IMG/VR virus record: IMGVR_UViG_3300030329_006012
Span: 124,001 to 188,000 of that record
Strand: one strand, 5' to 3'
DNA: 64,000 bases
Origin: a virus
Positions 36,632 to 53,782 of the stretch are shown piece after piece. The position numbers and the translations under genes are program-made. The notes beneath the pieces are model-generated. The model did not search any database. It saw only the letters and a list, made by a program, of their open reading frames with translations, and was not told the origin of the DNA. The first letter of the stretch is position 1. Every line of letters begins with the position of its first letter.

Positions 36632-36854
36632 AATTGGAGACTTAGTAAGAGAAAATGTCTTTAGGGAATACAACGATGCTTACGGCAGAGAATCTGTCTG
36701 GCGATACGGCATTGTTGTTGATGAACTAACCATAAAGGGAGTTGTCCACGACAAGATGTGCAAAGTCTGCTGGTCTGCATGTCCGCGCTTTCCGGTTTCA
36801 TCAAAACCATACACTTGCTTTGTTCAAGAAAAACAATTAGAGGTTGTTTCGTAA
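36603..36854 (+). CDS. GDLV-family protein, 83 aa
   Basis: ATG at 36603 behind AGGTGATT (36609 also possible). SIKIGDLVRENVFREYN, RYGIVVDELTI, CKVCWSACPRF with three cysteines, ending QEKQLEVVS. Last family member in the window. Confidence 0.65.
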   Translation: MIMNTTNSIKIGDLVRENVFREYNDAYGRESVWRYGIVVDELTIKGVVHDKMCKVCWSACPRFPVSSKPYTCFVQEKQLEVVS

Positions 36855-36872
36855 CTAAAAGCCTATTTATAG

Positions 36873-36901
36873 TGTAAAACATCCGTTTTTTATGTTATAA
36901 T
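36873..36901 (+). promoter_or_regulatory. Extended -10 promoter, near-leaderless
   Basis: TGTTATAAT (TGn plus TATAAT at 36896-36901) with a weak -35 TGTAAA at 36873. The predicted start (about 36908) is two bases before the ATG at 36910, which has no ribosome site. CCTATTTATAG lies upstream at about 36861, like the motif at 27923. Confidence 0.6.
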
Positions 36902-36909
36902 GGGCCAGT

Positions 36910-39900
36910 ATGAAAAACCTCGAAGATAGAATCTACAATAAATTAGTTGAAAAACCTAACCCTCTCGAAAATCACCAATATATACAGAGAGTGTTAGGCA
37001 TTAGTTTGCCATTGAACGAATCAGGCGCTACTTTCATATCCGAGAACATGAGAGAAGAGATTCTTGAAGAGCATATCCTCTATGAGAATTTTCTCAGAAA
37101 CTTAGCAAGTCAGATAAGAACAGGTGCTAAAGAAGTAAAACAATTATTCCAAGCTTTCTATTCTATGATTGCCGACAAAACTGGTGGCAAGATTGAGGTT
37201 TTTACAAAATATCTTAGTCGACTCATAAAACAACTTCGCAAAAAACTAGAAGGTGTATTGAATAAATTTGCCGGCGACACCCTACTAGAAGAAAAAATAA
37301 AAGAAAAAATACAAACACTTGCTGACATGTATGACGAGGCAAAAGGCTGGAAAAGAGTTATGCTTGGCAGCACAGTGTATCTTATTGTAACCTATCTTGT
37401 TGACAAGGTGGAAGATGCTGTAGAGAACATTAAGAGCAGCGGAAATTTAAAAGATGAGCTGATAGACAGGATCGTTAATTCTGACTTTGCTCAAAGTATT
37501 CTCAAGACATTGGGGAACCCAGAAGCGTGGCTTGGCTGGATCGGTCCTGTTGTCGGTGGAACCAAGTTTGTCGCCAAAGTTTTAAACCCGATAACGAGTA
37601 GGGTGTCTCACGATCCGGAAAGTTTAGTTAGCGAAGAAACTAAAAAACTTACGAATGAACGCCTCGACGTTGGGGGCCAACTAAGCCGCTTGACTCAGAT
37701 GATGATGGCCAGTGATGCATGTTGCGACACTGAGTCTATTTCTGGTTTGTGGTCAGAGAGTGATCCTCAATACGATATGTCTTTTCTCCTTCCCGAACCG
37801 GAATGGCGAGATTGGGAAGAAGGCGATAGCTATGAGGAAGACAAAGAAGAGTGGATTGAAAAAGAGATGGAGAAACGTAGAGTTGCCGACAAGGGAATCT
37901 CTATGGAAGAAATCTACAAGTCCAGAGAAGAGCTCGGAGAACTATCTCGGCAGGGATTAGTACAAGACGGCATCGCAACGCGAAGTCCTGACGGCTCTGG
38001 TGCCGTTGTGAAAGTCTGGCGATGCGGATCAACCAAGCAAATGGATGACAGCGATCAACCTGTCACTTCTGTAACGTGGAGTGAGAAGTATGCGTATAGG
38101 TTCTGCCAAGGCAAGAAGAAATACACACACCACAAGCACGACCACACCGAGGTTGATGCTTATTATGTAAATTTAAAAGACGTTCTTGTTTCAATCCCTC
38201 ACGTTTGGGACAACGCCTATGACGAGAAGGAATTGCTTGTGCGACCACAGGATTTAATTCCGGTAGAAGGATACGAACGAAAGATGGAAAATAAAATATA
38301 CGAACGCCTTGTTGGTGAAGAAAAAGAAATCAATTACAAAGACCACGCCAGTTTGACTTTTGATCAATTAAGCGATGCAGTTAGAACAGCACAAGACGCG
38401 AAAGAGAAAGCCGAAGAGAAGAAGATGGCAAAGACTGTAATCCCAGGAGAGGACTACAGGAAGCTCGACAGCGTGTCTCCACATTTTGAAGTTGTTGTCC
38501 CTATGTCAACAAAGGCTTCTTGCATTTATGGTGCTGGAACAAAATGGTGTACAGCGTCCAACGAGAAATACACCAAGAATTATTTTAGTGAGTATTATAA
38601 TGAGAATGGCTACACTCTTTATTATGTTCTCCCGAAAAAAGTTGATCCTGAACTGGCCAGACCTTTTGATTTCTTGGAAAAATCGCCGGAAGAGGTTGAA
38701 GACTTTGTTGGACAGTTTGATGATCTCTTCGAGGGAAAGAAAGAAGACTTAAAGAAGAAGTATCCACAGTTTGATTTGCCAGCCTATGGTGACGACACCG
38801 AATTAGCAGGAAAGCTTCGTGGCATCGACAGAATGGCGCAAGACGATCCTTCTGGGAAAAACAAATACCTTCCTTGGATGGTAAAGCAGCTTGACAAGAA
38901 AACACCACGAGAAGAAGACGGCACAATCAGCGATGTTGCAGCCGATGCTTGGCGGAGCAGAATTGTCAGACTCATTCAGCGGTATCACGACCTGTTGCCC
39001 TATATTGGCAAAAAGCCGGATCTAGATAAGAAGAAAAAAGAAGAGAAACCTCAAGAGCAAAGCAGATACGACAAGATTGCCGTTGTTATGGATCCTGATG
39101 ATGGAATCAATTCTGTTTATGATGCCGAAGACAATAGTGTCGAGATAACTTGGCTCACAGATGAGCTCCTTCCCTCGTGGGGATTTGAAAGAGGCGATGA
39201 AGCCGATTTAGTTTGGAGCAACCTCATCGATGCAATACACGACGACTTAAAAGACAACCCAAACACTTCACACCAAGTTAGTGACTTTTGGGAAGCAGAA
39301 GCAGACGATGCCTACTTCAAACACCTCTCCATCAACAGTGGAACTGAAGCTAGTTATGGAAAATTAGAAGTCAGCTTCACCTGTTATGTTACACTATCTG
39401 TGCCAGACATCGATGCTGATTGGGCAAAGAGATACGACAACGATACATTCAGAGGAGAAGACAGATCCAGACTTATGAAGTATTGGGATTTTGTTCAGCA
39501 ATGGCTGGACGTCGACGCGCTGTCCGAGAGAATCAAAGTGTTGGGTATGGCCCCTCTTAGAGAGTTTCCCGGTGCGCGAGCTCACAGCAGTCTCCCGCCA
39601 ATAAAAGAAGAACTAAGCAAGTCTAATGATGGCACACCACATATGGTGTTTAGCCAAAGCTGCACATATCGTTTCAAGCGAAACTGGCAGAATGACTGGC
39701 GGGACGATATGGAACCTAGCGCCAAGATAAGAGTTCAGAAAGCGGCAATCGAAAGTGTGTTCCGCTCCCTCAAGGATTTGGACGCTTCAATTGGCACAGC
39801 GTTTAACACCATATCCGCTGCAGCTCCCGATCACAACTTTGAAAAACCACTGCGAACAGAATGGCTCAAAGAACTTGAGAAGATAACCGAAGAGTGGATG

Positions 39901-42900
39901 GAAGCAAACCCACGAGGCAATCCCGAAGAAGAGGCTGCAGCATCCGATGCGGCCGTAGCCCAAATTATGAAACAACTAAACTTGGAAAACAGGATTTATA
40001 ACAAGCTCACTCTCAACGAAGTTACCTTCGAGGATGCAGAGAAGAACCTCGACGGCAAAAAGATTCGTAAGATGATAAAGGCATATAACTATGAGCTGGA
40101 TCCAGAAGCTGATCCTGAACGTGGTATGGGTGTGGCGCTGCAAAGACTCAAGAACACTATGAGGAAATTTATGCCATCCGATGTTGCAGACGGTGACAGA
40201 GGACAATCAATGCTTTGGGTAATTCGCATGCTCCGAACTCAAGAAGAGTTCCGCAATGCAGTGCTGGATTATTCCATTGGCGACGACACAGATCATCACG
40301 GCAACCGAACAACGACAATGGCGTGGAACATGCTGGTTCAGCGAATATCTCGAAACCTTGAGAAGTTTTTCCAACACAAGCGGCACATGAAAGTGAATGA
40401 TTTAAACAAAATTGACAGCGAAGAGATGTTGAACGATGTTGTTGACAAAGCAGAAGAAGCAATCGAGGCAGAGAACGAAAGAAAACTAGACTCAGATGCT
40501 CCACGAGGAACAGAATTTTTTGAAGGCAACTACCAATATGATGAAGACGGAGAAGTTGCCAGACATCCCGAAACGAGAATACCTTTATTCGATACCGAAA
40601 CGGGATGGGTTGTTGCTGCAGCGCACAATAAAGGCGCAGCTTGTCTGCTCGGCAAGAAGACAGAGTGGTGTACCGCTGCTCCTGGAAGAGATTTCTTTAA
40701 GCAATATTACGGCGGCGAAGATGATCCTCTTTTTGTTGTTCATACTCCTGAAGATGAGCGATATCAATTGGCGTTTGGCAAAGGCGAGTTTATGGATGTT
40801 GATGATGTCAAGATGACCGGCGAAGCATTCGAGCGCGTTCATGACAGGATAAAGTCAGCCATTGAAGCAAAAGGGCTGGAAGACAGATTTGAAAAAGTTA
40901 TGAACTATGAGCGCGTTGATATAGCAGCAAAAATTGCCGAAGCTGTTGAAGAAGTCAAGTCAGAGCAGAGATTCCCACGCGAAGTGGATATCAGTGCCGA
41001 TGTTGAGGACGATTATGATAGCGTAGGTATCCACGGCTATTGTACCACCAAGTTCGAGTTCGCTCTGAATGGCGGCCACGGCGATCCTCTCTGGAGTCAT
41101 CGCGACGAGGACGAAGTTGTTGAAGAACTTATTGAAGCATTTAACGACGCCAATGGCTCATTCTGTGTTGGCAATGAAGACTGCGAAGATCCAGCGGAGA
41201 ACATTGAGTGGGGCAAGTCGGGTGATAAGGGATACCAGAATTTTGAAATTAGCTATTCATTTTTTAAATCCTGGTACTCCTATGAAGACGACGATGGTAC
41301 ACCTGAATTGGATGACGCCACTTACTGGATGGGAGAGGTGAGGCGAACTATCGACGACGATTACGAAGGAATAAAATCCAAGATTCGCGGTGCCCTCTTA
41401 AATCTTGGTGTCGTTAAGAAAAACGAAATTGACGAACTGATTGATGAAAACGATGGCGAAAAGATAAAAGGAATGTTTGACAACTTTGAAGTTTATGTGT
41501 TACCTCAATATAGCCAAGCCAACGTATATATGCGAGGCGACTTGCCAAAAGAAGGCTGGGATTTGAGTCGCGACGGCATTAACGTACTAGAGCGCCCAAC
41601 GTTCGGCAGAAAATTATGGTTCTCGGCAATCAAAGCAGTCGAAGAGGTTGCAAGCCGGCAATTGGGGTTGGATTTTGGGATAGATGAGCCAGACGACGAA
41701 ATCAACACAGCCCACGGAATGTTTGATGTTCCGAATGGGGCCGCATTAAGTATTAACAACGAAATGATCGCCGTAGACACTGGAAAAAGGAACGTAAACA
41801 AGGAACCAATTCCAATGGGGATACCTCGCCCTCGACAATGGGTAATGAAGGTGCCAATCGAATCTGATGGTTCTGATGGGAGCGTGAGAACGACAACTCA
41901 GTTTATACAGAATTTAAAAATTGCAAACAGATATCCTAAATTATTTCGAAGTGCTGTCGAGAAGCTGATTAAAATAGAAATAGACAACCTGCAAAGAGAC
42001 GAAGACAACCGCAATGCCGATGCAGAGAAAAAATACTTTATGGAACCAATCGATCCCGAAAGACTAATGCCGGGAGAGTTGGCAGAAGGATTAGAAAGAC
42101 TTGAAGAAGTCTCTTTCGATGACGCCCTCAAGTCAGTCGATAAGCAGGGCAAGAAAATGGCAAAGGGTTATAACTATGACACTGGCCGCGAGCCCGATCA
42201 TAACTTAGATAAAATGATGATAGCCTTCGCAAGAAAGGTTCGCAGGTTCATTCCTCGCGACATAGATGATGGACAGAAAGCACTTGCCACACTATGGCTT
42301 TTGAGGACAATAAAGAAAGAGCCTCAGATGCGTGAAGACTTTTTCAACGACAATGCATATCTCGGAGGCTATGAATATAATAGTCTAAAGAACGACTTGG
42401 AAAAATTCTTCCAATATAATCGTTTTATGGAGCCTCGTGATTTAAATGCTGTCAAGAACCATCACCACTTGCACAAAGTCACAGGTCAAGCTCAGGCCGC
42501 AATCGAAGCAGATGCAGCGAAAAAGCTGGAAGCTGATGCTGAAGCTGGTACAGATGTTTTGCGCGACGACGCAGAATGGTATATCGCAATCATCAATAAC
42601 AAGGGAGCAGCGTGTACTCTTGGTAAAGGAACAGACTGGTGTACGGCAGCTCCTGGATTAAACTACTTCAAGCAATACTACGAGGAAGATGATCCTTTAT
42701 TCTTCATCGAATCCAAAGATACCGAAGAGAAGTGGCAATTTCATTATGGCTCACGCCAATTTATGGACGTCAACGATCATCAGGTGGACAGAGAAACGTT
42801 CGAGAACCTTCACCATGTTTTAATGTCTGCGCTGGAAGAAAAGGGTTACGAAGAGAGATATCCAAAAGTGTTTGAACACGAGCACAAGGATTATCATCAA

Positions 42901-44145
42901 GAAATGAAAGACCTCATCGAAAGAGAGGAAGAACTTATAGATCACAAGATGATTGAAATCAACGGAAGTGTCGATGACGACGTAGACGCTCAACACTTTC
43001 ACGCAGAGTGTCATGTTGACTTTATTTTTGATCGCCCCGAAGGTAAGTACGCAAGCGCCGAAGTTGCAATGGGCCCAGAAGAATATGATATGCTGGCGGA
43101 GAAATTCACCACCGAAGCTGGTGAAGTTATTTATGTTGCTTCAAACAATCGGGACACTGGTATGGATGACAGTATGGAAGATTATATACAAATAGTCGAA
43201 ACTGACAGATCTATTAAAGTGGGCATTGCATCTTGGTATAGTGATTATGCTATGGATGGCGACGGTGTTGAAAGCGCCTTTGAAGGCGTAAAAGACTTCT
43301 TTGATAATGTTCGTTACGGAATTGACAGAAATTATGAAGACATCAAAGAGGGTATCCGTGCATTGCTCATTAGCTGGGAAATGCTCGACGGAACAAAGTA
43401 TGATAAAATACTTGATGCAGGAGAAGAAGCCCACGAGGAATTCGAGGAACAATTTAAACCACTCCAAATGACAATGGATGCAGACGACAGGGAAATAAGA
43501 ATTAATTTTACTTTCCCCAAAGGACCAGAAGCACAAGACGTCGTTGGCTATCAACTTGGCGTCGGAATGCAGAGGCTCAGAAGGTTCATATTTAGAATGG
43601 GCATCAAAGCGGCAGCAAACAAATTGGGTGATGAAACCAAGCAACCAACACAACTCGGACTTCCGGGAACTGACACCGAAGAACAAGAAACCGATGCAGA
43701 GAAATTAAACCAACTTGCTTGGCTCTTGAGCGCAAGCAACGCTTATCTGAAGGCGATGGATTCTGCAGCAGAAAACGTTTATGTTCGGATGGATGCCAAT
43801 GCTGGCCAACTCCTTGCTTGGAATGATATGTTCTTCGAAGGAATGAAGGCTGTTTCGCGGAACTACGAACTTGTGCAAAAGGCTCTATCGAAAGCACTGG
43901 AATTTGTGGTTATAGAAAATCCAGAAGACTTTCCAATGCCGGACAAGAAAGAAAAAGAATTAACTGAAATTATAGCTGACGAGGTTGTAAAAGCCATGAC
44001 AGAGATTGAGCCTTATCAAAAGAAGGCCAGAAAATGGCAAAAGCGAGCTTTGAAACTAAATATTAAAGGCGGCAATAAATATTTGACCAAGGGAATGAAG
44101 ATTGCTTCAACCAAATTGGGTAAGTCTGCCCCACCAGGAGGATGA
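36910..44145 (+). CDS. Giant modular virion/ejected protein with ART-like and WCTA modules
   Basis: 2411 aa. Tag-like segments EDRIYNKLVEK (residue 5), MENKIYERLVGEE (about 458) and LENRIYNKLTLNE (about 1024) mark module borders. Residues 345-445 have R (VWRCGS), S-x-T (TSVTWSEKYAYRF) and E-x-E (YDEKELLVRP), the order seen in ADP-ribosyltransferases such as T4 Alt. A module with GTKWCTAS, KTEWCTAAPG or GTDWCTAAPG followed by YF/FF-x-QYY occurs at about 542, 1249 and 1906; modules 2 and 3 share long flanks. Function of WCTA modules is unknown. Possibly a capsid-internal polyprotein cleaved on assembly. No signal peptide. Confidence 0.7.
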   Translation: MKNLEDRIYNKLVEKPNPLENHQYIQRVLGISLPLNESGATFISENMREEILEEHILYENFLRNLASQIRTGAKEVKQLFQAFYSMIADKTGGKIEVFTKYLSRLIKQLRKKLEGVLNKFAGDTLLEEKIKEKIQTLADMYDEAKGWKRVMLGSTVYLIVTYLVDKVEDAVENIKSSGNLKDELIDRIVNSDFAQSILKTLGNPEAWLGWIGPVVGGTKFVAKVLNPITSRVSHDPESLVSEETKKLTNERLDVGGQLSRLTQMMMASDACCDTESISGLWSESDPQYDMSFLLPEPEWRDWEEGDSYEEDKEEWIEKEMEKRRVADKGISMEEIYKSREELGELSRQGLVQDGIATRSPDGSGAVVKVWRCGSTKQMDDSDQPVTSVTWSEKYAYRFCQGKKKYTHHKHDHTEVDAYYVNLKDVLVSIPHVWDNAYDEKELLVRPQDLIPVEGYERKMENKIYERLVGEEKEINYKDHASLTFDQLSDAVRTAQDAKEKAEEKKMAKTVIPGEDYRKLDSVSPHFEVVVPMSTKASCIYGAGTKWCTASNEKYTKNYFSEYYNENGYTLYYVLPKKVDPELARPFDFLEKSPEEVEDFVGQFDDLFEGKKEDLKKKYPQFDLPAYGDDTELAGKLRGIDRMAQDDPSGKNKYLPWMVKQLDKKTPREEDGTISDVAADAWRSRIVRLIQRYHDLLPYIGKKPDLDKKKKEEKPQEQSRYDKIAVVMDPDDGINSVYDAEDNSVEITWLTDELLPSWGFERGDEADLVWSNLIDAIHDDLKDNPNTSHQVSDFWEAEADDAYFKHLSINSGTEASYGKLEVSFTCYVTLSVPDIDADWAKRYDNDTFRGEDRSRLMKYWDFVQQWLDVDALSERIKVLGMAPLREFPGARAHSSLPPIKEELSKSNDGTPHMVFSQSCTYRFKRNWQNDWRDDMEPSAKIRVQKAAIESVFRSLKDLDASIGTAFNTISAAAPDHNFEKPLRTEWLKELEKITEEWMEANPRGNPEEEAAASDAAVAQIMKQLNLENRIYNKLTLNEVTFEDAEKNLDGKKIRKMIKAYNYELDPEADPERGMGVALQRLKNTMRKFMPSDVADGDRGQSMLWVIRMLRTQEEFRNAVLDYSIGDDTDHHGNRTTTMAWNMLVQRISRNLEKFFQHKRHMKVNDLNKIDSEEMLNDVVDKAEEAIEAENERKLDSDAPRGTEFFEGNYQYDEDGEVARHPETRIPLFDTETGWVVAAAHNKGAACLLGKKTEWCTAAPGRDFFKQYYGGEDDPLFVVHTPEDERYQLAFGKGEFMDVDDVKMTGEAFERVHDRIKSAIEAKGLEDRFEKVMNYERVDIAAKIAEAVEEVKSEQRFPREVDISADVEDDYDSVGIHGYCTTKFEFALNGGHGDPLWSHRDEDEVVEELIEAFNDANGSFCVGNEDCEDPAENIEWGKSGDKGYQNFEISYSFFKSWYSYEDDDGTPELDDATYWMGEVRRTIDDDYEGIKSKIRGALLNLGVVKKNEIDELIDENDGEKIKGMFDNFEVYVLPQYSQANVYMRGDLPKEGWDLSRDGINVLERPTFGRKLWFSAIKAVEEVASRQLGLDFGIDEPDDEINTAHGMFDVPNGAALSINNEMIAVDTGKRNVNKEPIPMGIPRPRQWVMKVPIESDGSDGSVRTTTQFIQNLKIANRYPKLFRSAVEKLIKIEIDNLQRDEDNRNADAEKKYFMEPIDPERLMPGELAEGLERLEEVSFDDALKSVDKQGKKMAKGYNYDTGREPDHNLDKMMIAFARKVRRFIPRDIDDGQKALATLWLLRTIKKEPQMREDFFNDNAYLGGYEYNSLKNDLEKFFQYNRFMEPRDLNAVKNHHHLHKVTGQAQAAIEADAAKKLEADAEAGTDVLRDDAEWYIAIINNKGAACTLGKGTDWCTAAPGLNYFKQYYEEDDPLFFIESKDTEEKWQFHYGSRQFMDVNDHQVDRETFENLHHVLMSALEEKGYEERYPKVFEHEHKDYHQEMKDLIEREEELIDHKMIEINGSVDDDVDAQHFHAECHVDFIFDRPEGKYASAEVAMGPEEYDMLAEKFTTEAGEVIYVASNNRDTGMDDSMEDYIQIVETDRSIKVGIASWYSDYAMDGDGVESAFEGVKDFFDNVRYGIDRNYEDIKEGIRALLISWEMLDGTKYDKILDAGEEAHEEFEEQFKPLQMTMDADDREIRINFTFPKGPEAQDVVGYQLGVGMQRLRRFIFRMGIKAAANKLGDETKQPTQLGLPGTDTEEQETDAEKLNQLAWLLSASNAYLKAMDSAAENVYVRMDANAGQLLAWNDMFFEGMKAVSRNYELVQKALSKALEFVVIENPEDFPMPDKKEKELTEIIADEVVKAMTEIEPYQKKARKWQKRALKLNIKGGNKYLTKGMKIASTKLGKSAPPGG

Positions 44146-44146
44146 G

Positions 44147-44341
44147 ATGAAATTACATAAAGTAAATAACAGGAGAAACGAAAGACTTTTTAAAAGGCTG
44201 ACTGAAGGATTCGGCCCAGCTGGTATTTCAAATCTTGCTGATTATGAACAAAGACAAGATCATGATGAGGATGATTCTATTGACAACACTGAAATGATGG
44301 AAAACGAATCCATCGATGAAATGATTGAACAGCAGCCCTAA
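44147..44341 (+). CDS. Small tagged protein, 64 aa
   Basis: ATG at 44147 behind AGGAGGATGAG. Starts with NNRRNERLFKRLTEGFG, close to the tags in the giant protein and in the 45268 protein, and contains L-T-E. The remainder is very acidic (EDDSIDNTEMMENESIDEMI). Possibly a packaged internal peptide or scaffold. Confidence 0.6.
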   Translation: MKLHKVNNRRNERLFKRLTEGFGPAGISNLADYEQRQDHDEDDSIDNTEMMENESIDEMIEQQP

Positions 44342-44740: not shown

Positions 44741-45271
44741 ATGCATAACAAAAACACCATTCACGAGCTTATAAGGGAGTTTTACCCCTATGCAAAGGAA
44801 AAAATGGGCTTTAACAAGCCATGTAGAGTCTTTTTGCGCGAAAATAAGGAAAATTACGCTGATCCACTCGGAAAAACGGCATATTATGACCCACAGGGTA
44901 TGGAAATACACCTTTTTACCACCGGACGGCACCCAAAGGACGTCATGAGGAGCTTTTCTCATGAGCTGGTCCACCATACCCAAAACTGCCGAGGATCACT
45001 GGATTCTGTCGGGCCAACGGCCGAAGGATACGCCCAAAACAACAAACACCTTCGAGAAATGGAAAAAGAAGCCTACTTAGAAGGGAATCTCTGTTTTAGA
45101 GACTGGACAGATACTCGCGAGAAGAATAATCAGGGAATAGCGAAACACCGAGGGGACGGAACAAACGATCAGGGCTCGATACCGCTTAGAAACAACGATA
45201 GAGAGGAGTGGCTTGGGCCTGCAGGAAACCATTCTGCCCACTACTCCAAAGGAAACAGGGATCCATCATGA
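44741..45271 (+). CDS. HExxH metallopeptidase-like virion-region protein
   Basis: 176 aa. FSHELVHHTQNCRG near residue 77 is an HExxH site with a following His, and MEKEAYLEGNLCFRDW about 35 residues later offers an acidic third ligand, as in zinc peptidases of the gluzincin type. I recall similar genes from T4-like marine phages. C-terminal 45 residues look disordered. It could process virion proteins or the cell wall. The stop overlaps the next start (ATGA). Confidence 0.68.
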   Translation: MHNKNTIHELIREFYPYAKEKMGFNKPCRVFLRENKENYADPLGKTAYYDPQGMEIHLFTTGRHPKDVMRSFSHELVHHTQNCRGSLDSVGPTAEGYAQNNKHLREMEKEAYLEGNLCFRDWTDTREKNNQGIAKHRGDGTNDQGSIPLRNNDREEWLGPAGNHSAHYSKGNRDPS

Positions 45272-45894
45272 AAAAATATCTAAACAACAGAAATAAAAAA
45301 TTATTCAACAAACTATTTGAAAATCAGGGCATAAAGGTTAAAGAAATCGGAATTCCAGAGAAGACCGCTTGGTTAGCAAAGGAAGAAAGCCTAGACGAAG
45401 AGTCCGAGGTAAATACAGCCGGCATAGAAAGGCTCTTGACTCAAATAAGTGATAAGCTCGACACACTCGATGATATCGACATCAGTATTGATTATTTAAC
45501 TGCTGCACTTACCGGCATCGATCCCGACGTGGCAAATAAAGGACAGGCCGTTTTTGGCAGAGAAGCAGAGCCAGTCGTTAATGTGAAAGAAGGTGAAGGG
45601 CATGTTGTTATATCACCAGATGATGAAGACGACGAAGAGGATAGTGAAGATTATATTGACGAAGCTCAGGCATTAAGAGGCGACAGCATTGCGAAAATTC
45701 AAAAAACCCTCCGGCCGGTAGCAAGCATTTTAAGGACAGTTGACACTCCTCAAGAAACGGCTCAGGTGGTCAACTTTTTGCTGAAGCACATAGCAGAGAT
45801 GTCGAAAGGGCAACTTACAAAACAAGAGATGATGGTCGCCCTAAAGAATCTTGTTCAAGATCTAAATGAAGCGAAAGCTTCAAAAATAAAATAG
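45268..45894 (+). CDS. Tagged helical protein, 208 aa
   Basis: ATG at 45268 overlaps the previous stop. N terminus YLNNRNKKLFNKLFENQG matches the tag of the 44147 protein (N-N-R-x-x-x-LF-x-[KR]-L) and has L-F-E. The middle is acidic (SPDDEDDEEDSEDYIDEAQ); the ends are helical (IERLLTQISDKLDTLDDID; VNFLLKHIAEM). No enzyme motif. A scaffold-like or internal virion protein is a reasonable guess. Confidence 0.62.
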   Translation: MKKYLNNRNKKLFNKLFENQGIKVKEIGIPEKTAWLAKEESLDEESEVNTAGIERLLTQISDKLDTLDDIDISIDYLTAALTGIDPDVANKGQAVFGREAEPVVNVKEGEGHVVISPDDEDDEEDSEDYIDEAQALRGDSIAKIQKTLRPVASILRTVDTPQETAQVVNFLLKHIAEMSKGQLTKQEMMVALKNLVQDLNEAKASKIK

Positions 45895-46493: not shown

Positions 46494-46496
46494 TTG

Positions 46497-49298
46497 ATGG
46501 GTGGCCTAGCAGGACATATGTCTCATTTATATGATAACCCTGATCTCACTTTCGGAGAGATAGAGGATATTTTTATTAAGGCGAGCTCTGGTGCCCTCGT
46601 TGGCACCGAGAAGACCGATGGTCAAAATATCTTCCTATCTTATTCTGTTAAAAACAAAAAAGCCGTGGCTGCACGGAATATAACTAATATCAAAAAAGGC
46701 GGCATGACCGCATCAGAACTGGCCGATAAGTTTGCTGGGCGAGGTAATCTGGAAAAATCTTTCACAGATTCCTTTGCCGCCTTTGAAAAGGCAGTCAACA
46801 TGTTTCCACTAGAGAAGCAAATAGATATTTTTGGCCCTGATGCAAACATATGGTACAATGCCGAAATTCAAGATCCTCGCACATCGAATGTAATTAATTA
46901 TGATGATAAATCCCTAACTATTCATCGAGTGGGCCATAAAGAGTTTGATAAGCAAAGCGGCAAACCACTAGATAAAGATGTTTCCGCCCACGCCGAACAA
47001 CTGGAAGATGCACTGGGCAATATACAATCTAACGCGGGTAGGGAAGAATATAAGGTTCAAGTAAACGCCTTAAAAAATTTGGACTCTCTGGGTAATGATG
47101 AGGCGCTAAATGTTGCCCTGTCTCGTCTCTTTAACCTGATGGAGTCAAATCATCTTACAAAATCAAACACAGTAATGGACTTTTTATCTAAAAGGGTTAA
47201 AGAAGTTATAAATAAGGTGATCCCGGAAGCGGATGATGATCTAAAACACGCGGTACTCGAAAGAATTTTCAAAGTAAAGGGCTCCAACCTAAGAAAGATT
47301 ATTAAAATGATCGACCCTGAAGACACCGCTCAGATCAAGAAAGTTCGAAACCTCATCGATAAGGCTGCCAAGGTAGCTACTGCTTCGATTTTCCCTCTAG
47401 AAGATATTGTTCACGACTTTTCCGTAGAAATGCTGAAGGGTTTAGAGTCCGCGTTTGTATTAGACAACGCTAAGGAAGTTAAAAGATTGAGAAGTGAAGT
47501 TGCCGAGGCGATAAAAGCAATCGAGAAGTCAAACAACGAAGAGGCTCTTGGGATTCTCGCAAAGCAAATGAAGAAGCTGAAAGATGTTGAGAATGTATCT
47601 ACTGCAGCTGAGGGTTTTGTTTTTGACTACGACGGTGTTTCTTATAAGTTTACTGGCAATTTTGCACCAGTTAATCAACTGCTTGGACTGTTTAGGTATG
47701 GCCGTGGCAACGTTCCAGCAATGCAAATTGACCTAGAAGAAGACTTGGGAGAGTCAGGGGTCAAGGCAGATGTAGCCTTTATTCCAGGTTCATTCAAGCC
47801 ACCACACAAAGGTCACTTAAAGTTGATGAAGGATTACCTAAAGTATGCCGACAGGGTTGAGGTGTTGATATCTGAGCCTAATATGGGAGGCGATAATGTC
47901 CGATGGATCAATCTGCCCCCAAGGAAAGAGGGTGATGCACCTTTGGAGCTAATGATTGATGCAGATACTGCGGCGGACTTGTTTGAACATTATATTGAGC
48001 TTGAAGGTCTCTCTGATAAAATAACCGTTCCAAGAATTTGGAATGGTGGCTCTAACAACCCAATACAATATATATTTGGAAAGATTTCTGACTGGGAAAG
48101 TCAAAAAAAGAATATGAATGTTGTCCTCGGCGTTAGCACAAAAGACGAGGGCGATGAGAATAGATTTAAGGATAATAAATCAAAATCACCATTTAAAGAT
48201 CAGGAGTATGTTAGAGTAAAGGATATTCCGCTGCCGCCTGACCCAACCAAACTTCGGGCGAATGATTTTAGAAAGTCAATTGCAAAGGCTTGGTCTACTG
48301 GCGATCTGGGCTCTATATCCAGATTCCTTCCTGAAAAATGGGTGGCTGCTCATGAAACACCGGCGAAGGCCGCGCTAGACTTTATAGATATGATTGGTGA
48401 CGCGCCGGTAAAAGAGAAGGAAATAAATGAAGCTTCATCTTGTGCGGGTGGTGCAATTCAGGGCTCCAGTGGCGGTCAAGAACTTGAAGACACTCTAATT
48501 AGAGAAGAGGACGAAGATATGAAAGAATACATGATTAGCAGAGAAGAATTTATAGAGGAGTTGTTCCTTCGGGAAAAAATAAGGGAAAAACTCACCAAAG
48601 CCCTTATCAACGAGAAAATAGAAGAGTCCAAGGTTCGTGATGCCATTAGGGCTATGATACAGGAAGAAGTCAAAGATGCACCTTACAAAAGCACAGGGAT
48701 CAATGAGTTGGAAACTTTGTTGAAAAAGATTATCCCCGTCATAGAACCCGACTATAAGAGCCTGACAACCGCATCAGAACAAAGAGAGTCTTTTCGGGCC
48801 CATATTTTAAACGCTGTGCAGAACTCTCTGTCGCCCACAGGCGCGTCGGGTGCCATGCATCGCGATGACATTGGTGTGTTGGATTTACCAAGCGAAGAGG
48901 ATTTCGGACTTGAAGAAGATGGGCCTAAAGAGGAAATAAATATTGCAGTTAGTGATGATAAATTTATTGACATCGACGAGAAGCCGCCAACAGAAGAGGA
49001 TGAGGAAGAGAAGGAATTTTCACTAGAAGGTGAAGAAGAGACCGGAAGAAATTTTGCTTCTATGACTTGGGGCCGCATTGAAACAAACATTGTTGACTCT
49101 TATCGCAAACTATCGAATAATAAAGATCGCGACTTGTTTTATGATTATCTAATCGCCAATTTGAAACTTTATTTTGATAAATTTGAAGATGAGCTTTCCT
49201 CCATCGTCGATGAACCAGAGAGTGACATCTATGATCAGGAGACTAATAAATCTCCAGAAGAAGACTTTGAACTAGGCGACGAAGAAGCAGCGATTTAA
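46497..49298 (+). CDS. KxDG ligase-like plus HxGH nucleotidyltransferase fusion
   Basis: 933 aa; ATG at 46497 (TTG at 46494 in frame) with AAGGAG upstream. Residues 1-400: MGGLAGHMSHLYDNP, then GTEKTDGQNIFLSY with the K-x-D-G of covalent nucleotidyltransferases (RNA/DNA ligases), later EGFVFDYDGVSYKFTG resembling ligase motifs IV-V. Residues 425-600: FIPGSFKPPHKGHLKLM, an HxGH cytidylyl/adenylyltransferase fold. Residues 650-933 are acidic and helical, likely disordered. I recall related genes in T4-like marine phages; the substrate is unknown (RNA repair or NAD/nucleotide metabolism possible). Confidence 0.78.
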   Translation: MGGLAGHMSHLYDNPDLTFGEIEDIFIKASSGALVGTEKTDGQNIFLSYSVKNKKAVAARNITNIKKGGMTASELADKFAGRGNLEKSFTDSFAAFEKAVNMFPLEKQIDIFGPDANIWYNAEIQDPRTSNVINYDDKSLTIHRVGHKEFDKQSGKPLDKDVSAHAEQLEDALGNIQSNAGREEYKVQVNALKNLDSLGNDEALNVALSRLFNLMESNHLTKSNTVMDFLSKRVKEVINKVIPEADDDLKHAVLERIFKVKGSNLRKIIKMIDPEDTAQIKKVRNLIDKAAKVATASIFPLEDIVHDFSVEMLKGLESAFVLDNAKEVKRLRSEVAEAIKAIEKSNNEEALGILAKQMKKLKDVENVSTAAEGFVFDYDGVSYKFTGNFAPVNQLLGLFRYGRGNVPAMQIDLEEDLGESGVKADVAFIPGSFKPPHKGHLKLMKDYLKYADRVEVLISEPNMGGDNVRWINLPPRKEGDAPLELMIDADTAADLFEHYIELEGLSDKITVPRIWNGGSNNPIQYIFGKISDWESQKKNMNVVLGVSTKDEGDENRFKDNKSKSPFKDQEYVRVKDIPLPPDPTKLRANDFRKSIAKAWSTGDLGSISRFLPEKWVAAHETPAKAALDFIDMIGDAPVKEKEINEASSCAGGAIQGSSGGQELEDTLIREEDEDMKEYMISREEFIEELFLREKIREKLTKALINEKIEESKVRDAIRAMIQEEVKDAPYKSTGINELETLLKKIIPVIEPDYKSLTTASEQRESFRAHILNAVQNSLSPTGASGAMHRDDIGVLDLPSEEDFGLEEDGPKEEINIAVSDDKFIDIDEKPPTEEDEEEKEFSLEGEEETGRNFASMTWGRIETNIVDSYRKLSNNKDRDLFYDYLIANLKLYFDKFEDELSSIVDEPESDIYDQETNKSPEEDFELGDEEAAI

Positions 49299-51427: not shown

Positions 51428-53782
51428 TTGTTCGGAAGTAAAAGTTCTAAAAAAGCAATAATACCGATTTTAACTTTAAAGAATACTGTATTTTTCCCAA
51501 ATACCGTAGTTCCGTTATTGGTAGGTAGAGAAAAGTCTCTAAAGCTGATCGACGACGTTATTAGGACAGGGACTGTGTTAGGGGTCATAGCCCAAAAGAG
51601 CGCCGAAACAGAAAACCCAGAAATAGAAGATCTGTATGGTGTCGGCACTTTAGCCAAGATTGTTAAATTCTCTAAAAATTCTGAAGGATATTATAATATA
51701 ATCATCGAAGGCTTATCAAGATTCGAGATAGAGGAGTTTAGAAATACTGAACCATACTTTACAGCAGAAATAAAAGAGCTTCCAGACACAGCTTCTTCAG
51801 AGCTCTCGGCCCATGAACTGCCAATTCTTTTTGAAACCCTCAGAGAAACGGCCTATGATATCTGCATGTCTTTGCCAGAACTCCCAACCAGTGTACGGGG
51901 ATTTATAGAGACGGTGAACGAGCCAGGAATGTTAGCAGATATTGTTGCCAGCAACCTTGGCCAAGATACCAAAGAAAAGCAATCAATATTGGAGACAATA
52001 GATGTCGCTGATCGGATGATGAGAGCGTTGGAGCTATTAGGCCGAAAGCACGAAATGCTCACACTTTCAGATAAAATAAATAACTCGGTCAAAGAAGAAA
52101 TTTCCAAAAATCAAAAAGAGTATTATCTTAGGCAACAGTTAAAAGCCATCAATAGCGAACTTGGCGAAACAGCCGAAGAGAACGAAGATCTTAATAACTT
52201 AAAAGAAAAGATGAAAACAATTGATCTACCAGAAGATGTTGTAAAGACCGTTACTAAAGAAATTAAGAAGATGCGAAATATGCAGCCAAGTCAGGCAGAA
52301 TATAATGTGGCTTTAAACTATGTCGACGCTCTCCTTGAATTTCCTTGGGATACCAAAACAAGAGACAGTCTAGACATAGAGAATGTTCAGAAACAATTGG
52401 ACGCAGATCATCATGGCCTTGAAAAAGTGAAGGAAAGAATTGTAGAATATTTAGCAGTTCGAAAATTAAAAGACAATATGGCCGGCCCAATCCTTTGCTT
52501 GCTGGGCCCACCAGGAGTTGGAAAAACATCTCTTGGGAAATCAATTGCTCATGCCCTTGGCAGGAAGCTGGAGAGAATCTCATTAGGAGGGGTATCCGAC
52601 GAGTCAGAGATCCGAGGCCATCGCCGAACCTACATCGGCGCCATGCCAGGAAAGATTGTCAAATCATTTACGAAATTACAAGTTAATAATCCCCTTATTT
52701 TACTCGACGAGATCGATAAAATGAGTAAAGACCACAAAGGAGATCCAGCTTCGGCAATGCTTGAAGTATTGGACCCAGAACAAAACAATAGTTTTATGGA
52801 TCACTATTTTGATGTTCCTGTCGATTTATCGGACACGCTATTTATTGCCACCGCTAACGACATAAGTACAATTCCTGGCCCACTAAGAGACCGCATGGAA
52901 GTCATAGAACTTTCGGGCTATACTTATGATGAGAAAGAAAATATTGCTAAAAAACATCTTATTCCAAAGCAGGTAAAGAAAAACGGGATTACAGAAAATA
53001 ATATCATTTTTAGAGACAAGGCCCTTACAAAGTTGATTCTTCAATATACTCGTGAAGCCGGCGTTCGGAGCCTAGAGAGGGAAATCGCCAAGGTGTGTCG
53101 CCAAGTCGCTGCAGAAGTAGCGAAGGGAGAGGAAAAGCCTGAAAATATAATTAAGATTATCAACAAAAAGAACTTGGAAGACTTCTCAGGGCCCACAAAG
53201 TTCGACATAGAGGCCGACATGCGAGCCCGTAATCCTGGCGTCGCAACCGGCTTAGCGTGGACAGCCGCCGGAGGAGATGTCCTCTACATAGAGGCAACTA
53301 AGATGGCTGGCAAGGGAAATTTATTGTTGACAGGGAAGATCGGGGATGTCATGTCCGAATCTGCCAAGACAGCCTTGAGTCTGATTAGGAGCAAGGCTAA
53401 GAAGCTGGGGATCGTAAAAGACGAGAAAGATAAGTTTTTAGAGGATGTAGACTTGCACATCCACTTCCCTGCAGGAGCAGTGCCAAAAGACGGCCCATCA
53501 GCCGGTATAACTATCAGCACAGCCCTTGTCTCTCTCTTGACGGACAGGAAAATTAGGATTGACACTGCAATGACAGGAGAAACAAGCCTCAGAGGATTGG
53601 TGCTTCCCGTCGGCGGCATTAAGGAAAAAGTAATAGCAGCCCACAGGCTTGGTATTAAAAGAATTATTCTTCCTCCGAAAAATGAGAAGGATATGAAAGA
53701 CATCCCAGAGAATATCAAAGAAGAAGTAGACTTCTTTTTTCCAGAGACTGTGGAAGAGGTTTTTGAATTGGCTCTAGAATAA
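51428..53782 (+). CDS. lon: Lon ATP-dependent protease
   Basis: 784 aa, TTG start with AGGAG six bases upstream. N-terminal substrate domain (PILTLKNTVFFPNTVVPLLV), coiled linker (NQKEYYLRQQLKAINSELGE), AAA+ module with Walker A LGPPGVGKTSLGKSI at about 358-372 and Walker B LILLDEIDKM at about 421, then the serine-lysine protease domain: catalytic Ser in KDGPSAGITIS (about 690) and Lys in GGIKEKVIAAHRLGIK. All active-site residues are intact and the length equals typical bacterial LonA. In a phage it may replace or compete with host Lon, degrade host regulators or help virion assembly. No phage-specific domain added. Confidence 0.96.
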   Translation: MFGSKSSKKAIIPILTLKNTVFFPNTVVPLLVGREKSLKLIDDVIRTGTVLGVIAQKSAETENPEIEDLYGVGTLAKIVKFSKNSEGYYNIIIEGLSRFEIEEFRNTEPYFTAEIKELPDTASSELSAHELPILFETLRETAYDICMSLPELPTSVRGFIETVNEPGMLADIVASNLGQDTKEKQSILETIDVADRMMRALELLGRKHEMLTLSDKINNSVKEEISKNQKEYYLRQQLKAINSELGETAEENEDLNNLKEKMKTIDLPEDVVKTVTKEIKKMRNMQPSQAEYNVALNYVDALLEFPWDTKTRDSLDIENVQKQLDADHHGLEKVKERIVEYLAVRKLKDNMAGPILCLLGPPGVGKTSLGKSIAHALGRKLERISLGGVSDESEIRGHRRTYIGAMPGKIVKSFTKLQVNNPLILLDEIDKMSKDHKGDPASAMLEVLDPEQNNSFMDHYFDVPVDLSDTLFIATANDISTIPGPLRDRMEVIELSGYTYDEKENIAKKHLIPKQVKKNGITENNIIFRDKALTKLILQYTREAGVRSLEREIAKVCRQVAAEVAKGEEKPENIIKIINKKNLEDFSGPTKFDIEADMRARNPGVATGLAWTAAGGDVLYIEATKMAGKGNLLLTGKIGDVMSESAKTALSLIRSKAKKLGIVKDEKDKFLEDVDLHIHFPAGAVPKDGPSAGITISTALVSLLTDRKIRIDTAMTGETSLRGLVLPVGGIKEKVIAAHRLGIKRIILPPKNEKDMKDIPENIKEEVDFFFPETVEEVFELALE

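What the first reader, a model, noticed from the sequence alone, without database searches (positions are those of the whole stretch)
36910..44145. Giant protein with repeated tags, an ADP-ribosyltransferase-like region and three WCTA modules
Three copies of a short tag ([ED]-[NR]-[RK]-I-Y-[NE]-[KR]-L) lie at residue 5, about 458 and about 1024, and the first and third contain L-x-E. This equals the prohead-protease cleavage pattern of T4 (L/I-x-E) that trims capsid-targeting tags from internal proteins such as Alt, itself an ADP-ribosyltransferase. Here a region with R, S-x-T and E-x-E follows the first tag. The design suggests a polyprotein packaged and cut into several ejected enzymes. The WCTA modules are a separate, unexplained repeat.
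Basis: partly seen in the sequence, partly recalled or inferred. Interest (0 to 1): 0.75.

Follow-up and report, generated by a model that had tools for sequence, protein, structure and literature searches.

The report
Fused, repeatedly tagged phage head protein
A T4-like phage appears to have strung several head-packaged proteins into one 2,411-residue chain and kept a start-of-protein packaging tag in front of most of the pieces, which suggests a precursor that is loaded into the phage head and cut into separately injected parts; this is inferred from sequence and not yet shown by experiment.

Summary
The ORF (36910-44145, 2411 aa) and its three tags are real. A tag model built only from the N-termini of three orthologous giants ranks the internal tags 2nd and 4th of 54,138 windows in this genome. 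Two downstream genes begin with related tags. The phage encodes a T4-type prohead protease (gp21) and capsid protein (gp23). The bare L-x-E count is uninformative (32 seen, 31 expected), but L-x-E sits exactly where WCTA modules 2 and 3 begin.

The key finding: WCTA modules occur as stand-alone proteins in unrelated phages. Nearly all of these start with a short tag ending in [LI]xE, and some continue into sequence homologous to the giant's module starts. One (PA5oct) is a mass-spectrometry-confirmed virion protein. The giant is therefore most likely a tandem fusion of head-targeted proteins; cutting by gp21 is plausible but unproven. Tag 2 and the orthologues' first tags lack L-x-E.

WCTA modules look like divergent PcfJ-like domains (predicted-fold match) with no solved relative. 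The ADP-ribosyltransferase call is unresolved: motif only, no family match, failed structure model. It lies in a cassette recently exchanged between phages, bounded by tags.

The parts
36910..44145 (+). giant tagged fusion protein, 2411 aa
   Evidence: orthologues L001 (2215 aa) and L036/G001 (1646 aa)
36919..36951 (+). tag 1, residues 4-14 LEDRIYNKLVE, N-terminal; candidate cut after E14
   Evidence: L-x-E not kept in the orthologues
36955..37629 (+). X domain, residues 16-240, with hydrophobic stretches; present in L036, absent in L001
37642..38361 (+). exchanged cassette, residues 245-484, holding the ART-like region and tag 2; nearly identical in L001
37927..38274 (+). ART-like region, residues 340-455 (R371, S387-V-T389, E439-K-E441); identity unproven
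   Evidence: sequence; no family match; weak PHROG matches; failed model
38284..38316 (+). tag 2, residues 459-469 MENKIYERLVG, starts with Met, no L-x-E
38323..39966 (+). module 1, residues 472-1019, first WCTA (W546)
39967..40020 (+). tag 3, residues 1020-1037 MKQLNLENRIYNKLTLNE, with L-N-E just before module 2
40021..42099 (+). module 2, residues 1038-1730, second WCTA (W1253)
42100..42108 (+). junction L1731-E-E1733 before module 3 (no full tag)
   Evidence: L001 LQE, L018 LTE, L020 LNE at the homologous place
42109..44004 (+). module 3, residues 1734-2365, third WCTA (W1910); N-terminal 267 aa modelled with pLDDT 84.7, PcfJ-like
44005..44142 (+). basic C-terminal tail, residues 2366-2411 (13 K/R, 1 D/E)
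44147..44341 (+). 64-aa gene with N-terminal tag RNERLFKRLTE
45268..45894 (+). 208-aa gene with N-terminal tag RNKKLFNKLFENQ, sharing LFENQ/LLENQ with the capsid-protein propeptide
44741..45271 (+). small HELVHH metallopeptidase-like protein, conserved near the giant in all three phages; alternative processing enzyme

Best explanation
The ORF is an in-frame tandem fusion of several T4-type internal head proteins. Each short tag ([E/N]-x-[RK]-[IL]-[YF]-[NK]-[KR]-L, with a nearby [LI]xE at some units) is the packaging signal that units of this kind carry at their N-terminus when encoded separately. The tags direct the chain into the prohead scaffold core. During head maturation the phage's own gp21 protease then probably cuts after L-x-E at residue 14, residue 1037 and residue 1733, giving three pieces of about 1023, 696 and 678 residues that stay in the head with the DNA and are ejected into the host. 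Shown here: the tags, their rarity, their use at gene starts, homology of module starts with stand-alone tagged proteins, and cassette gain and loss at tag boundaries. Inferred: packaging, cutting and injection. The activities of the WCTA (PcfJ-like) modules and of the ART-like region are guesses; host-takeover or anti-defence roles fit best.
For: gp21 (Peptidase_S77, E=6.5e-33) and gp23 (E=2e-61) in the same genome. The capsid protein has a T4-like propeptide with ELLREA. Tag profile ranks and regex rarity. Downstream genes in this phage and in G001 start with the related tag RNE[RK]L[LF]xKLFENQ, with a similar tag in L001. The LFENQ/LLENQ string occurs only twice in the genome's ORFs, in one such tag and in the capsid-protein propeptide, and T4 gp23 has IFENQ there. 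Stand-alone WCTA proteins: [LI]xE in the first 25 residues in 17 of 20 against 32 of 95 other ORFs, p=3e-5; 14 of 16 after collapsing close paralogues by hand, p=7e-5. L018 LLTE|ISFEQAV, L020 LLNE|LSLEDVEKRF and the giant LNE|VTFEDAEKNL align at their module starts. The PA5oct WCTA protein is a virion protein by MS; the Paride one lies between the large terminase and a virion protein. A start-like Met precedes internal tags in all three giants. Cassette swapping at tags. Independent fusion with an internal RDLLIEA junction in L046.
Against: Tag 2 lacks L-x-E, and the first tags of both orthologues lack it. Module 3 has L-x-E but no tag. L-x-E as a bare motif is at chance level in the giant. 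No proteomic data exist for this phage. In SPN3US the mapped prohead-protease cuts, apart from the protease's own, remove N-terminal propeptides rather than splitting proteins (PMC10052503), so polyprotein cutting would be a departure.
Confidence: 0.55

Rival explanations
1. The internal tags are fossils: tagged genes fused, the N-terminal tag packages the whole chain, and the giant works uncut as one multidomain injected protein like N4 virion RNA polymerase.
For: Tag 2 without L-x-E; N4 precedent (PMC5512222); long chains can be ejected.
Against: Tag 3 keeps its pattern and L-x-E in three giants although the sequence has diverged and the linker before it has not been conserved.
Confidence: 0.25
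2. The giant is a polyvalent-type protein cut by another protease, for example the HELVHH metallopeptidase-like protein encoded just downstream, before packaging or after injection.
For: The HELVHH gene lies near the giant in all three phages; polyvalent proteins use metallopeptidase domains for this (PMC5512222).
Against: The peptidase assignment is only a motif with sub-threshold Pfam matches; L-x-E at the junctions points to gp21.
Confidence: 0.1
3. The giant is an intracellular or tail protein and the tag is a general interaction helix unrelated to head packaging.
For: The locus follows a large fibre-like ORF, far from the head-gene cluster; a weak tape-measure match to residues 59-189 (E=0.02).
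Against: Stand-alone WCTA proteins with [LI]xE tags, one in virions; tag similarity to the capsid-protein propeptide.
Confidence: 0.1

Closest known systems
T4 internal head proteins (IPI, IPII, IPIII) with capsid targeting sequence, and Alt
   Same: Short N-terminal tag, T4-type protease and capsid protein, expected gp21 cut after [LI]xE
   Different: T4 proteins are separate short polypeptides with one tag each; the tag sequence differs (MKTYQEFIAEA); here several units share one chain with internal tags
Polyvalent proteins of phages (Iyer et al. 2017, PMC5512222)
   Same: Several unrelated domains in one protein thought to be delivered with the DNA; ART domains common; mosaic cassettes
   Different: Those described often carry embedded peptidase domains; none recognised here; instead repeated head-targeting tags. 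The paper does not mention PcfJ
PcfJ (PF14284)
   Same: Predicted fold of the WCTA module matches PcfJ-like phage proteins in BFVD at E 2e-4 to 1e-2; single Cys after a Leu-Gly segment at the same place
   Different: No PF14284 match to the window genome or to PA5oct and Paride; profile comparison not significant; WCTA/QFMDxxD signature instead
PHROG families 28193 and 17056
   Same: Sequence match over the WCTA modules at E 1e-18 and 1e-16
   Different: Function unknown in both

Membership tests
T4-type capsid-targeted internal head protein | phage encodes a gp21-type prohead protease and gp23-type capsid | tested here: met
T4-type capsid-targeted internal head protein | N-terminal tag shared with other proteins of the phage | tested here: met
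T4-type capsid-targeted internal head protein | [LI]xE cleavage site at the end of the tag | tested here: inconclusive
   met at tags 1 and 3 and the module 3 junction, not at tag 2; first tag not conserved in orthologues
T4-type capsid-targeted internal head protein | present in the virion head and cleaved by the protease | not testable with these tools
   only a homologous domain (PA5oct) is MS-confirmed
ADP-ribosyltransferase (Alt-like or ART-PolyVal) | significant match to an ART family | tested here: not met
ADP-ribosyltransferase (Alt-like or ART-PolyVal) | ART fold | tested here: inconclusive
   model pLDDT 33
ADP-ribosyltransferase (Alt-like or ART-PolyVal) | R, S-x-S/T and E-x-E in order | tested here: met
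   R371, S387-V-T389, E439-K-E441, identical in L001; only two close sequences, so weak
PcfJ (PF14284) | Pfam profile match | tested here: not met
PcfJ (PF14284) | similar fold | tested here: inconclusive
   BFVD hits to PcfJ-like proteins E 2e-4 to 1e-2 with low TM-scores
Polyvalent protein | several unrelated effector-type domains in one chain delivered with DNA | tested here: inconclusive
   multidomain and tagged; delivery not testable
Polyvalent protein | embedded peptidase domain (common, not universal) | tested here: inconclusive
   no peptidase family matched in the giant; HELVHH protein encoded separately

The most novel reading that the evidence does not exclude
A phage head polyprotein: one precursor with repeated capsid-targeting tags that is loaded into the prohead and cut by the maturation protease at internal tag ends into several injected effectors, with tags also serving as the joints at which effector cassettes are exchanged between phages.
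Probability: 0.45. Interest if true: 0.8.

Novelty: new variant of a known kind. Interest (0 to 1): 0.6.

Why it matters
If true, it shows a tailed phage building a cleavable polyprotein of injected proteins with the head-maturation protease as the cutter, a logic known from eukaryotic viruses and proposed for polyvalent proteins only through embedded peptidases. It also gives a handle on a widespread family of phage proteins of unknown function: WCTA/PcfJ-like domains preceded by [LI]xE tags can now be predicted to be head-packaged and tested as such, for example in PA5oct or Paride.

Tried and rejected
Direct similarity searches of the full giant in 50,697 phage records found nothing. ART identity: Pfam, NCBIfam, PHROGs and PDB searches and a two-sequence AlphaFold model gave no usable result; scans of viral contigs and bacterial genomes for ART relatives found only L001; following the weak PHROG 8590 lead through other genomes found nothing. 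Internal translation starts: an AUG precedes tags 2 and 3, but Shine-Dalgarno sequences are absent, badly spaced or inconsistent among the orthologues, so separate initiation is unlikely as a general mechanism. A tag profile trained only on the downstream genes' tags does not rank the internal tags highly; only models including the giants' own N-terminal tags do. PDB fold search with the WCTA module: nothing at E<=0.001. Profile comparison of WCTA with two PcfJ sequences: not significant.

Full report
What is there. Window 36910-44145 is a single open frame of 2411 aa in a 190,225-bp virus record. The record encodes a T4-type prohead protease and major capsid protein, with portal-like and scaffold-like genes around them. 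The giant has no significant Pfam, NCBIfam or PDB match and no relative among 50,697 phage records when searched at full length. Two PHROG families of unknown function match its WCTA modules.

Checking the tags. A tag pattern occurs eight times in all ORFs of the genome: three times in the giant, twice at the N-termini of downstream genes (44147 and 45268), three times inside unrelated proteins. To avoid circularity I trained a BLOSUM profile on the N-terminal tags of three orthologous giants only; the internal tags then rank 2nd (tag 3) and 4th (tag 2) of 54,138 windows, and the matching internal tags of L001 score about as high. The third giant's tag 3 is weaker (77 windows score as high). 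A profile from the downstream-gene tags alone finds tag 1 as the best genomic hit outside its training set but not the internal ones. The bare L-x-E motif is at chance frequency (32 against 31.1); what is notable is position. L-x-E ends the segment just before module 2 in all three giants and just before module 3 in the two that have it. Tag 2 has none.

Relatives. Two orthologues were found. L001 (2215 aa) lacks the X domain and starts directly with tag 1 plus the ART-like cassette. L036/G001 (1646 aa) has X but lacks the ART cassette and tag 2 and has two WCTA modules. The ART cassette together with tag 2 (residues 245-484) is 87-98% identical in protein between window and L001, with third-codon-position identity of about 0.65-0.78, against about 0.25-0.56 there and mostly 25-70% protein identity elsewhere. 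So cassettes are gained, lost and exchanged, and their edges fall at tags.

The modules as separate proteins. A WCTA search of viral contigs gave 18 loci. The encoded proteins are mostly 240-820 aa, and [LI]xE lies in the first 25 residues of 17 of 20 against 32 of 95 other ORFs in the same loci (p=3e-5; 14 of 16 after collapsing close paralogues by hand; the set includes proteins from the annotated phages PA5oct and SCTP-2). Several continue into sequence homologous with the starts of modules 2 and 3: L018 LLTE|ISFEQAVDRM, L020 LLNE|LSLEDVEKRF, giant LNE|VTFEDAEKNL and LEE|VSFDDALKSV. Neighbouring genes in L018 and L019 carry the same kind of tag (MKILLENWRGFLNE and similar). In PA5oct the WCTA protein is a virion protein by ESI-MS/MS. 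L046, a contig in a Mycoplasmatota bin, encodes 900 aa with an ART-PolyVal-like N-terminus (E=0.0012, below Pfam's cut-off), an internal RDLLIEA junction and a WCTA module: a second, independent fusion.

Link to the capsid. The string [LIMF][LFIY]ENQ occurs only twice in the ORFs of this genome, in the capsid-protein propeptide (MSRLLENQAKELLREA) and in the tag of the 45268 gene (KLFNKLFENQ); T4 gp23 has AKIFENQ in its propeptide. This suggests that the tag imitates the part of the capsid precursor that meets the scaffold core. This is inference.

What the domains are. The model of the first 267 residues of module 3 is confident (pLDDT 84.7): a helical N-terminal part and a small alpha/beta WCTA part. 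No PDB entry matches at E<=0.001. In BFVD the hits are other WCTA proteins and then PcfJ-like proteins (E 2e-4 to 1e-2), so the WCTA module is probably a divergent PcfJ-like domain, function unknown; a profile comparison with two PcfJ sequences was not significant. The ART-like region keeps R371, S387-x-T389 and E439-x-E441 in both sequences, but the model failed (pLDDT 33) and no ART family matched. I treat it as possible, not shown.

Mechanism and rivals. The best reading is a tandem fusion of head-targeted proteins, packaged through the tags and probably cut by gp21 at E14, E1037 and E1733. The main rival is that internal tags are leftovers and the chain works uncut, as N4 virion RNA polymerase does (PMC5512222). 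A second rival is cutting by the HELVHH protein encoded nearby in all three phages. Internal translation starts are not supported consistently. In SPN3US the mapped prohead cuts are N-terminal apart from the protease's own, often several per propeptide (PMC10052503), so the machinery for multiple cuts exists but polyprotein use would be new. T4's capsid targeting sequence is established as sufficient to package foreign proteins (PMC9958956; PMC3012670).

Verdict. It is a new variant of T4-type internal head proteins and of polyvalent proteins.

Noticed in passing
window 37642-38361: The ART-like cassette with tag 2 is nearly identical to that of L001 while the rest of the gene is far more diverged: a recent exchange with edges at tags.
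   Followed up: yes
window 44005-44146: The basic C-terminal tail is almost invariant between two phages, and its last codons (GGAGGA) carry the Shine-Dalgarno sequence of the next gene.
   Followed up: partly
window 36800-36909: About 100 bp upstream of the giant is conserved in L001, ending TTATAATGGGCCAGTATG, with no clear Shine-Dalgarno sequence.
   Followed up: no
window 51428-53782: A phage-encoded, full-length Lon protease with all domains; L001 encodes a relative at its 3' end.
   Followed up: no
window 36955-37629: The X domain has hydrophobic stretches (around residues 150 and 207) and is found elsewhere only in L036; possibly membrane-active.
   Followed up: partly
L016: Salicola phage SCTP-2 has at least six WCTA paralogues in one 24-kb stretch, most with the tag MKVKHITQYLFES; L032 and L022 also have more than one.
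   Followed up: partly
window 46494-49298: 934-aa protein with a cytidylyltransferase-like core between long extensions, conserved next to the tagged genes in L001.
   Followed up: no
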